NCBI RefSeq assembly: GCF_017355405.1
Contig: NZ_CP061177.1
Span: forward strand, 248,001 to 312,000
DNA: 64,000 nt
Source of the DNA: Roseomonas haemaphysalidis
GTDB taxonomy: Bacteria; Pseudomonadota; Alphaproteobacteria; Acetobacterales; Acetobacteraceae
Direction: 5' to 3'
The translations under genes were made by a program, and so were the position numbers. Below, in pieces: positions 11,347 to 12,513 of this stretch (within the stretch, counting starts at the first letter, position 1; every line of letters starts with the position of its first letter). The notes beneath the pieces are model-generated. The model saw only the letters and a program-made list of their open reading frames with translations, searched no databases and was not told where the DNA came from.

Positions 11347-11652
11347 ATGTACACGCTCGAGATCGGTGGCCAGCCCACCGCCATCATGAACGCCGACGAG
11401 GCCGATGCCCGCGCCATTCTGGAGGCCGACGGCTTTCTGGACGACCTCAAGACCCTGACCACCGAGGGCAAGCCCATCTGGGACGGCAAGGCTCCGCTCA
11501 ACCTGCGCGCCTCCACCGAGGACGAAGTGGCCGAGTTCGAGGCCAGCGAGGACGAGGACGAGGAGGAAGAAGAGGACGAGGACTCCGCCACCGTCCTGTT
11601 CCTGGTTCCGCTGGACGACGACGAGGAAGACGAGGACGACGAAGAGGCCTGA
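11347..11652 (+). CDS. Hypothetical acidic small protein
   Basis: 101 residues. The first ~65 look like a small folded domain (MYTLEIGGQPTAIMNADEADA, then DDLKTLTTEGKPIWDGK). The rest is strongly acidic, with two Asp/Glu runs (about residues 68-78 and 90-101) around a short hydrophobic strand TVLFLVPL. The acidic runs are encoded by gag/gac triplets, so the tail could vary in length by slippage. No family recognised. Predicted pI is very low, which suggests binding of a basic partner or metal; that is a guess. A perfect 10-bp hairpin follows the stop. It lies between zwf and the tiny gene at 11809, both on the same strand. Confidence 0.72.
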   Translation: MYTLEIGGQPTAIMNADEADARAILEADGFLDDLKTLTTEGKPIWDGKAPLNLRASTEDEVAEFEASEDEDEEEEEDEDSATVLFLVPLDDDEEDEDDEEA

Positions 11653-11686: not shown

Positions 11687-11710
11687 TCCACGCCTGCTGT
11701 CGTGGGGCAT

Positions 11711-11808
11711 CCGCTGAAATAGCGGTCCCCCGGCATTCCGCCCCTTGTGGCGGGGGCGGCGCGATCCCAGCTTTCTGTCAGCAGCAACAACAGAAAGGAG
11801 GTGATCTA
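11711..11808 (+). promoter_or_regulatory. Structured leader with SD-sequestering stem and perfect 16S-complementary ribosome binding site
   Basis: Three hairpins follow each other: CCGCT/AGCGG (11711-11725), CCGCC/GGCGG (11738-11753), and CTTTCTGT (11771-11778) with ACAGAAAG (11790-11797). The last stem covers the 5' half of the ribosome binding site AGAAAGGAGGTGATC (11792-11806). That 15-mer is the exact complement of the usual 16S rRNA 3' end, GATCACCTCCTTTCT, and is 7 bases (from GGAGG) ahead of the GTG at 11809. The layout looks like a switch between a closed and a very strong open initiation site. I see no clear -35/-10 pair upstream. Confidence 0.7.
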
Positions 11809-11886
11809 GTGTCTCATTGTTTGACGTCGGCCCCCGTGGCCCAGGCCTGGATCTCTCTGTCCCTCGCGCCGGCTTGCGCGCGCTGA
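11809..11886 (+). CDS. Tiny gene: 25-residue peptide with extreme Shine-Dalgarno
   Basis: GTG-started frame of 25 codons ending in TGA at 11884-11886. The peptide begins VSHCLTSAPV, has a Trp at residue 14 and ends SLAPACAR; it has two cysteines, one hydrophobic middle and no charged residue except the C-terminal Arg and His3. Evidence that it is translated is the 15-nt perfect match to the 16S 3' end at ideal spacing. It lies in a self-contained unit: structured leader upstream, an 8-bp GCCGGCGC/GCGCCGGC hairpin 10 bases past the stop, and a strong terminator at 11966-11998. I do not recognise a named family. It could be a leader peptide, a ribosome-directed peptide, or a coding part of a regulatory RNA. 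Confidence 0.6.
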   Translation: MSHCLTSAPVAQAWISLSLAPACAR

Positions 11887-11896
11887 GATAGGCCCC

Positions 11897-11915
11897 GCCG
11901 GCGCTTGGCGCCGGC
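11897..11915 (+). ncRNA. Strong hairpin downstream of the tiny gene
   Basis: GCCGGCGC (11897-11904) and GCGCCGGC (11908-11915) form a perfect 8-bp stem with a TTG loop, 10 bases after the tiny gene's stop codon. There is no U-run, so it is not itself a terminator. Together with the leader stems and the terminator at 11966 it gives a highly structured RNA of about 290 nt that may act as a regulatory RNA. Confidence 0.5.
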
Positions 11916-11965
11916 CGGTACCAGGCCGGGTCCCACAGGGCCCACAGACAATGCCTGAACGACGG

Positions 11966-11998
11966 AAGGCCCCGGGGATCGCTCCCCGGGGCCTTCTT
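11966..11998. terminator. Strong bidirectional terminator between the tiny gene and hup
   Basis: AAGGCCCCGGGG (11966-11977) pairs with CCCCGGGGCCTT (11984-11995), extended by one A-T pair, followed by CTT on the plus strand and preceded by the complementary TTCC on the other. Lying 80 bp past the tiny gene and about 38 bp past the end of convergent hup, it can serve both. Confidence 0.8.
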
Positions 11999-12035
11999 CA
12001 TGTCCGGCCATCCCGGCGGTGCCGGGACCGCGGGA

Positions 12036-12308
12036 TCAGCCCAGGCGGGACTTGAGGTCCTTGGCGGGCTTGAACTTCACGGACTTGCTGGCCGCGATGT
12101 CCACTTCCTCGCCCGTGGCGGGGTTGCGGCCCTTGCGGGCGGCGCGCTCGCTGATGGCGAAGCTGCCGAAGCCGGCCAGACGGACCTCGCGGCCCTCGCC
12201 CAGCGCGTCGCCCAGGCTGGTCAGCATCGCCTTCAGGGCGGCGTCGGCCTGGTTCTTGGGCAGGCTGGTGGCCGTCGCCACGGCGTCGATCAGGTCCTGG
12301 CGGCTCAT
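12036..12308 (-). CDS. hup: DNA-binding protein HU
   Basis: 90-residue histone-like protein that bends and compacts DNA as a dimer. Visible: helical N terminus MSRQDLIDAVATATSLPKNQADAALKAM, the hinge VRLAGFGSFAISERAARKGRNPATGEEVDI containing the GFGSF and the arm RNPATGE with the intercalating Pro, and the C-terminal SVKFKPAKDLKSRL. I chose the ATG at 12308 since family members begin at this point, although an upstream in-frame ATG at 12347 exists and no strong Shine-Dalgarno is visible. Single-gene unit, divergent from the Ugp-like operon, and convergent with the tiny gene. Confidence 0.95.
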   Translation of the reverse strand: MSRQDLIDAVATATSLPKNQADAALKAMLTSLGDALGEGREVRLAGFGSFAISERAARKGRNPATGEEVDIAASKSVKFKPAKDLKSRLG

Positions 12309-12446
12309 CGGGCGGTTTTGATCGCTCAAAGGAATTCTCCAACTCATAGAAGCGCGGCAGCAAGGACACGGCTCGGGGGGCGCGGTCAAGACGGCTGCCG
12401 CGCTTTCCCCGCCTGCACGCCCCGGTTGTGACCGGAAATCGTCATC

Positions 12447-12459
12447 TGCATGCCATGCA
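12447..12459. promoter_or_regulatory. 13-bp perfect palindrome upstream of the Ugp-like operon
   Basis: TGCATG-C-CATGCA in the 205-bp gap between divergent hup and the importer operon, 55 bp before the first start codon. Its symmetry and place fit an operator, but no regulator gene is adjacent. Confidence 0.35.
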
Positions 12460-12513
12460 AGCGTCACCGAACCCCAACAGGAAGGTCACGCAACCCGGTT
12501 AAGCAGCCGCCCC

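What the first reader, a model, noticed from the sequence alone, without database searches (positions are those of the whole stretch)
11711..12000. Tiny gene with a 15-nt perfect match to the 16S rRNA 3' end inside a highly structured transcript
Seen: AGAAAGGAGGTGATC precedes a GTG at 11809 by an ideal distance and is exactly complementary to the usual 16S 3' tail. An 8-bp perfect stem (CTTTCTGT/ACAGAAAG) hides its 5' half, two more stems lie upstream, an 8-bp stem lies just past the stop, and a strong terminator closes the unit at 11966-11998. Known: ordinary Shine-Dalgarno matches are 4-6 nt; longer ones can trap ribosomes. Inference: the RNA may titrate 30S subunits, sense ribosome availability, or be a leader or dual-function small RNA with a 25-residue peptide.
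Basis: partly seen in the sequence, partly recalled or inferred. Interest (0 to 1): 0.8.

Follow-up and report, generated by a model that had tools for sequence, protein, structure and literature searches.

The report
Ribosome-tail-matching small RNA with mini-gene
This is a small free-standing RNA, found in many alphaproteobacteria, whose ribosome-binding site matches the tail of the ribosome's own RNA almost perfectly, may be masked by a built-in copy of that tail, and starts a roughly 24-codon reading frame whose length is conserved much better than its protein sequence.

Summary
The core observation is real and conserved; details need correcting. Window 11785-11994 is a full-length but sub-threshold match to Rfam RF01867, the orphan Caulobacter sRNA CC2171 (58.7 bits, cut-off 75). 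94 of 387 genomes of the class match at E<=0.001, 14 over the cut-off; 0 of 186 genomes of other classes carry the core. The family core GAAAGGAGGTGATCCAG complements 17 nt of the 16S tail; the window has 17 pairs with one G.U, and its leading A does not pair. The in-frame stop falls at codon 20-26 in 146 of 153 sequences, against 6 and 14 in the other frames, while amino acids are only weakly constrained. Helix CAUUGUC/GACAAUG is well supported. A mask of the ribosome site by an internal 16S-like CUGGAUC pairs in 86.5% of cells but has no more two-sided changes than slid controls, and the window's predicted fold leaves the site open. Best reading: a dual-function small RNA whose translation responds to 30S subunits; homology and frame are shown, function is inferred.

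The parts
11744..11772 (+). promoter-like element: CTTGTG (11744-11749), 17-nt spacer, CCAGCT (11767-11772); RNA start predicted near 11779
   Evidence: CTTG at -54 to -49 from AAGG in 71 of 150 relatives; the -10 and start position are inferred by eye; the simple sigma-70 scan listed none
11793..11809 (+). extended Shine-Dalgarno block GAAAGGAGGTGATCTAG, complementary to the 16S 3' tail CUGGAUCACCUCCUUUC (17 pairs, one G.U)
11803..11809 (+). proposed helix a, 5' strand GATCTAG (includes the G of the GTG start)
   Evidence: not in the predicted fold of the window
11809..11886 (+). small ORF, GTG start, 25 codons, TGA stop (MSHCLTSAPVAQAWISLSLAPACAR)
11815..11823 (+). helix b, 5' strand CATTGTTTG (codons 3-5); the conserved part is 11815-11821
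11847..11853 (+). proposed helix a, 3' strand CTGGATC: internal copy of part of the 16S tail, inside the ORF
   Evidence: partly paired elsewhere in the predicted fold
11898..11915 (+). hairpin after the stop codon; variable region in relatives
11945..11953 (+). helix b, 3' strand CAGACAATG; the conserved part is 11947-11953
11966..11999 (+). terminator-like GC hairpin followed by CTTC
   Evidence: not listed by the simple scan
11785..11994 (+). full-length sub-threshold match to Rfam RF01867 (CC2171)

Best explanation
A free-standing small RNA of about 220 nt, homologous to the orphan Caulobacter sRNA CC2171, that is also a tiny mRNA. Its ribosome-binding site is the complement of the 16S tail, so a 30S subunit can pair with up to 17 nt. 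The first codons pair with GACAAUG just before the terminator. In the free RNA the lower half of the ribosome site can also pair with a copy of the 16S tail (CUGGAUC) inside the reading frame; both helices together would be a pseudoknot. The upper half (GAAAGGAGG) remains a foothold, so a 30S subunit can displace the internal copy and translate about 24 codons, which melts both helices. What selection keeps is the act and extent of translation more than the peptide. SHOWN by sequence: homology, complementarity, the start-to-3'-end helix, the conserved frame and stop. SUPPORTED BUT NOT SETTLED: the mask by CUGGAUC. INFERRED: that the RNA is made in this strain, that 30S displaces the mask, and that the RNA reports or buffers free ribosomes.
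For: Homology and spread. 17-nt complement; the 16S duplex is computed to be stronger than the internal one in 150 of 150 sequences (mean -30.9 against -18.0 kcal/mol; window -29.5 against -15.2). The base 5' of GAAAGG varies (C 72, T 54, A 15, G 9 of 150) while that G is invariant, as expected if pairing ends at the 16S end. Helix b: 96.6% of cells paired, 18 cells changed on both sides, among them U-A to C-G in 10 and C-G to U-A in 7 sequences; L123 CATGGT/ACCATG; a 9-bp helix in the window's predicted fold. Helix a: 86.5% of cells paired, slid controls 8-54%; 8 two-sided cells against 2.1 in shuffles, 0 of 500 as high; L121 GATCCCG/CGGGATC. Frame: stop at codon 20-26 in 146 of 153; other frames 6 and 14; shuffled mean 16.9, maximum 28; stops 101 TGA, 29 TAA, 23 TAG; CTGG motif to stop in one phase in 109 of the 115 sequences that have the motif and a 20-26-codon frame. 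Codon 3 is CAT in 147 of 150, so the start region is kept as RNA. A Mesorhizobium RF01867 locus is tabulated with a 215-nt product (PMC5596092, passages; I read that column as the RNA-seq product, the header was not seen).
Against: No expression, probing or profiling data for this organism. Helix a is the weak step: its two-sided changes (8 cells) do not exceed slid versions (5-12 cells); 37 of 115 sequences break one of its pairs; own partners pair better than others' in only 99 of 154, and the window's own site type GATCTAG pairs worse with its own partners (-9.8 against -11.1, 4 sequences); nested folds from the predicted start leave the window's site mostly open and show SD-to-frame pairing in 33 of 150 sequences, helix b in 91 of 150 (nested folding cannot show both). 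Its 3' columns overlap codons that could be kept for Thr-Trp-Ile. The SD core partner is only 77% paired. The alignment set was chosen partly for carrying the helix-b 3' strand. A full 17-bp duplex includes the start codon's G and could hinder initiation. Amino-acid constraint is weak but not zero (z -4.4, or -3.1 with a regional null). No target or phenotype is known.
Confidence: 0.42

Rival explanations
1. The peptide itself is the product: an ordinary small protein of about 24 residues from a strongly translated small mRNA, with RNA structure only tuning expression.
For: Frame and stop conserved; weak excess of conservative changes in frame 0; a loose consensus, by eye MSHC..PRS....TWILAS.EVRAA, recurs.
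Against: Changes fall evenly over codon positions (158, 146, 139 in 45 independent pairs). Codons 2 and 3 show almost no synonymous change (TCT 150 of 150, of which TC is forced by the pattern; CAT 147 of 150), and TGC at codon 4 (18 of 150) is often, not always, matched in helix b. L121 starts MKDC and L019 MSIC. L133, L218, L222 and L233 keep CTGGAC and the stop but read the middle in another frame than Bosea L126. No Pfam or NCBIfam hit above cut-off for three peptides.
Confidence: 0.2
2. A 30S trap or 16S antisense RNA: the long duplex holds 30S subunits or covers the 16S 3' end, for example during maturation or dormancy, and translation is incidental.
For: 17-nt complementarity ends where the 16S tail should end and reaches the start codon; duplex energy beyond all other start sites in the window; the site is open in the window's predicted fold.
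Against: Incidental translation does not explain the conserved stop position and frame. A single small RNA would need very high abundance to titrate ribosomes (general knowledge).
Confidence: 0.18
3. A sponge for anti-Shine-Dalgarno small RNAs: alphaproteobacterial sRNAs with CCUCCUCCC loops could be caught by the exposed GGAGG.
For: Such sRNAs exist in Rhizobiales (SmelA075 and SmelA099, passage in PMC3927594).
Against: The conserved block extends to GAAAGGAGGUGAUCCAG, fitting the 16S tail and not CCUCCUCCC; the conserved frame is unexplained. No such sRNA was sought in this genome.
Confidence: 0.08
4. A leader peptide or attenuator controlling a downstream gene.
For: Small ORF followed by a terminator-like hairpin; the downstream ORF is on the same strand in some loci (L126, L153, L156).
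Against: In the window the next gene-like ORF is on the opposite strand (12036-12467 minus), and downstream ORFs differ among the 13 loci viewed.
Confidence: 0.04
5. A type I toxin mRNA like hok, with SD masking and 3' fold-back.
For: Similar layout: possible internal anti-SD and long-range pairing of the 3' end with the start region.
Against: Peptides are not strongly hydrophobic (mean GRAVY 0.18, sd 0.51) and are weakly conserved. No antisense RNA was sought.
Confidence: 0.02

Closest known systems
Rfam RF01867, CC2171 (Caulobacter sRNA)
   Same: Full-length alignment, same 5' block CAACAAnnGAAAGGAGGUGAUCCAGUGUCUCAUUGU, same closing helix CAUUGUC/GACAAUG, same terminator placement.
   Different: The window scores 58.7, below the 75-bit cut-off. 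The Rfam structure line shown has no SD-CUGGAUC helix (a pseudoknot would not appear there), and the family is typed as an sRNA gene, not as a small mRNA.
rnTrpL / peTrpL of Sinorhizobium meliloti (dual-function attenuator sRNA)
   Same: Short transcript with a tiny translated ORF in an alphaproteobacterium (passages of PMC10117765).
   Different: rnTrpL is leaderless and corresponds to the trp attenuator; here there is a very long SD and, in the window, no co-directional downstream gene.
hok-type mRNA fold-back (recalled, no call)
   Same: SD masked inside the transcript and the 3' end pairing back to the start region.
   Different: No membrane toxin peptide; the frame's amino acids are barely constrained; the proposed mask is a copy of the 16S tail.
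Extended SD sites of Staphylococcus aureus (PMC13009471, abstract and section list only)
   Same: Long SD-anti-SD pairing close to the start codon.
   Different: There it is a general initiation rule; here it is a single unit in a genome with one other exact AAGGAGGTGATC.

Membership tests
RF01867 CC2171 | score at or above Rfam's gathering cut-off (75 bits) | tested here: not met
   58.7 bits in the window; an intermediate found directly from the window, L016/G025, scores 81.7
RF01867 CC2171 | significant full-length match (model 1-159) | tested here: met
   E 8.6e-12 for a 361-base search, positions 1-159/159
RF01867 CC2171 | closing helix CAUUGUC/GACAAUG | tested here: met
   CATTGTT/GACAATG in the window; family covariation
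RF01867 CC2171 | expressed as a small RNA | not testable with these tools
   no RNA data for this organism; a 215-nt product is tabulated for Mesorhizobium
dual-function sRNA | translated ORF | tested here: inconclusive
   frame and stop conserved; no profiling data
dual-function sRNA | base-pairing regulation of other RNAs | not tested
   no target search was made
leader peptide / attenuator | conserved co-directional downstream gene | tested here: not met
   window neighbour on the opposite strand; neighbours differ among 13 loci printed of 15 asked (ORFs called by third-position GC only, no family search)
type I toxin mRNA (hok-like) | hydrophobic membrane peptide | tested here: not met
   mean GRAVY 0.18, sd 0.51
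anti-SD (cuckoo-type) sRNA | repeated CCUCCUCCC loops | tested here: not met
   none in the window unit or family consensus; the conserved block is the opposite polarity, GGAGG

The most novel reading that the evidence does not exclude
A conserved 30S-sensing RNA switch of Alphaproteobacteria: a pseudoknot in which a copy of the 16S tail masks an exact complement of that tail, so that free 30S subunits open it by strand displacement; translation of a frame kept for its length, not its peptide, holds it open and sets the RNA's stability or availability as a regulator. It would be a natural counterpart of designed toehold switches, with the ribosome itself as the trigger.
Probability: 0.18. Interest if true: 0.85.

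Novelty: new variant of a known kind. Interest (0 to 1): 0.6.

Why it matters
An orphan RNA family gains a testable anatomy: a conserved small reading frame, a 16S-tail complement and a possible internal 16S mimic. Rfam's cut-off misses most relatives seen here (14 of the 94 matching genomes pass it). If the 30S-competition idea holds, it gives a direct handle on how bacteria read free ribosome supply, and a conserved frame with a weakly constrained peptide is an unusual case of selection on translation itself.

Tried and rejected
Rfam at gathering threshold found nothing in the window; only the E-value scan showed CC2171. The simple promoter and terminator scan listed neither the promoter-like element nor the hairpin. 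No tRNA or tmRNA. Pfam and NCBIfam gave nothing above cut-off for three peptides. The codon-position test showed no third-position excess; permutation tests showed weak frame-0 constraint; both are reported. Nested folding does not show the proposed mask in the window. Literature: CC2171 or RF01867 is named relevantly in two held papers, Rfam 15 (one covarying pair added; passage) and a Mesorhizobium sRNA survey (passages); the other seven listed for CC2171 are unrelated by title. Landt 2008 is not held. Passages of a Caulobacter genome-architecture paper, PMC4117421, and of an iron paper, PMC6120978, gave nothing on this RNA. A search for the core DNA string found none; searches by peptide starts returned unrelated words; some searches were seen as listings, apart from the papers named here. 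Leader/attenuator and type I toxin ideas were rejected as above.

Selections: the loci fetched by then gave 161 distinct hits by a pattern that requires (A/G)TGTC after the SD, so start-codon counts from that set are partly forced; hits closer than 60 bases to a locus start or 260 to its end were dropped; 153 distinct frames (154 by another key); 150 with a helix-b partner found (3 dropped; a few partners there are wrong picks, for example L037 and L049); 117 in alignment A1 after redundancy and partner filters, which required a helix-b 3' strand ending in (A/G)TG and so favour helix b. The 30 loci that the covariance model fetched (L094-L123; four repeat earlier loci) all keep (A/G)TG at the same spacing. 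The 9 loci L097, L101, L102, L109-L111, L114, L118 and L121 and the divergent ones fetched after one search are not in A1.

Full report
WHAT IS IN THE WINDOW. The 15-mer AGAAAGGAGGTGATC lies at 11792-11806, GTG at 11809, a 25-codon frame to TGA at 11884-11886 and a strong GC hairpin at 11966-11999. Among 3735 ATG/GTG sites in the window this site pairs best with the 16S tail. The neighbouring ORF on the minus strand at 12036-12467 (HU-like by eye, no family search) converges on it, so the unit stands alone.

IDENTITY. A gathering-threshold Rfam scan is silent, but an E-value scan gives RF01867, CC2171, a Caulobacter sRNA, at 58.7 bits over the whole model (E 8.6e-12, cut-off 75). All 17 loci scanned, the window's own and 16 relatives, match the same family, one over the cut-off. 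That one, L016, from another family of the class, was reached directly from the window by DNA search. I therefore call the window unit a homologue below Rfam's formal cut-off. In 387 genomes of the class 94 match at E<=0.001 and 14 pass the cut-off; of 14 well-known control genomes only Caulobacter rings. The core pattern with up to three mismatches is in 45 of 387 class genomes. In a phylum sample it is in 32 of 299, all within the window's class (113 genomes of that class and 186 outside, my count from the listing); the reversed control pattern shows 0 in the rows listed. A same-genus hit, G008, matches the contig length and position of a Roseomonas sp. KE0001 contig, so the window is from a Roseomonas-like bacterium.

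16S COMPLEMENT. Two of three same-genus 16S genes end CTGGATCACCTCCTTTCAAGG. The family core GAAAGGAGGTGATCCAG is its exact 17-nt complement. The window reads GAAAGGAGGTGATCTAG, 17 pairs with one G.U. The base before GAAAGG varies in 150 relatives while the G is invariant, which fits pairing that stops at the mature 16S end. A second form, GGAGGTGGTC (L097, L101, L102, L109-L111, L114, L118), would keep the pairing through a G.U. The window's own assembly has no detectable 16S gene, so the host tail is inferred from the genus; the third genus 16S (L093) ends differently.

STRUCTURE. In an alignment of 117 relatives, CAUUGUC in codons 3-5 pairs with GACAAUG before the terminator in 96.6% of cells, with both-sided changes in 18 cells over three pairs, and CATGGT/ACCATG in L123. 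In the window it is a 9-bp helix of the predicted fold. The second helix is less certain. The lower SD GAUCCAG pairs with CUGGAUC inside the frame in 86.5% of cells, slid controls in 8-54%; 8 cells change on both sides against 2.1 in shuffles, but slid versions have 5-12 such cells, so this is no proof. Non-consensus sites pair on average better with their own partner (-12.0) than with consensus partners (-10.9 kcal/mol), own partners are better in 99 of 154 overall, and the window's own type is an exception. Clear paired changes occur in single loci such as L121, GATCCCG/CGGGATC. The order of the strands makes the two helices a pseudoknot or alternatives. Nested folding from the predicted start shows helix b in 91 of 150 and SD-to-frame pairing in 33 of 150, and leaves the window's site mostly open. 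If formed, the internal duplex is computed to be weaker than the 16S duplex in 150 of 150 sequences.

READING FRAME. The first in-frame stop lies at codon 20-26 in 146 of 153 sequences; the same sequences give 6 and 14 in the other two frames, and shuffles 16.9 on average, 28 at most. Lengths vary, but the CTGG motif is in one phase to the stop in 109 of the 115 sequences that have the motif and such a frame. Yet differences are spread evenly over codon positions (158, 146, 139; 45 independent pairs). A permutation test finds modest frame-specific constraint (nonsynonymous 242 against 276 expected, z -4.4; regional null z -3.1; other frames -1.1 to -2.7). In L133, L218, L222 and L233 (two labelled Bosea, one Methylobacterium, one Rhizobiales) the middle is read in a different frame than in Bosea L126, while CTGGAC and the stop stay. 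I read this as selection for translation of a set length with a loosely constrained peptide.

TRANSCRIPT ENDS. CTTG recurs 54-49 nt before AAGG in 71 of 150 relatives (CTTG anywhere in -70 to -35: 78 of 150, background 17 of 145). With a -10-like element 17 nt on, the RNA should start near 11779. A Mesorhizobium RF01867 locus is tabulated with a 215-nt product (PMC5596092, passages), close to the 220 nt predicted here. A fold of 11700-12004 is more stable than all 100 shuffles (z -4.96), but that stretch includes the promoter region.

MECHANISM. See best explanation. The 30S-competition step follows from the shared sequence and the computed energies; it is an inference. The output is unknown: ribosome buffering, RNA stability, or release of the 3' part for base pairing are all open.

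NOVELTY. Searches of the held library by name, family number and core sequence turned up no description of a frame, a 16S complement or an SD mask in this family in what I saw of them; the founding paper is not held, so this is not proof of absence in print.

Noticed in passing
L247 and L251 (about 1500-1700): Second-type units with the same SD block and a CATGGA start region but a 56-58 codon ORF with a hydrophobic, signal-like N-terminus (by eye); G422 has a site of each type by pattern.
   Followed up: partly
L249, L250, L252-L255, L261, L273: Further units with the SD block but different start regions and frames of 20-36 codons; several of these genomes appear with weak scores in the RF01867 search.
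   Followed up: partly
window 11965-11997: The terminator hairpin sequence recurs nearly identically at many places in the genus (hits to query positions around 264-311).
   Followed up: no
window 11347-11652: Small ORF with a long Asp/Glu-rich tail just upstream of the unit.
   Followed up: no
own genome G000: An 8-contig, 99.6% complete assembly in which no 16S rRNA gene is found; the control rang in 9 of 14 known genomes, so the search may miss some.
   Followed up: partly
L093 (G005:C101): A 16S end with CCTCCTTAATC on a 5.7-kb contig of a same-genus genome, unlike two relatives; perhaps contamination.
   Followed up: no
L200: A contig labelled Ramlibacter (a betaproteobacterium) carries a unit whose peptide is close to that of L095; perhaps misbinned.
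   Followed up: no
genomes G033, G415, G422, G292 and others: More than one RF01867-like place in one genome at E<=0.001.
   Followed up: no
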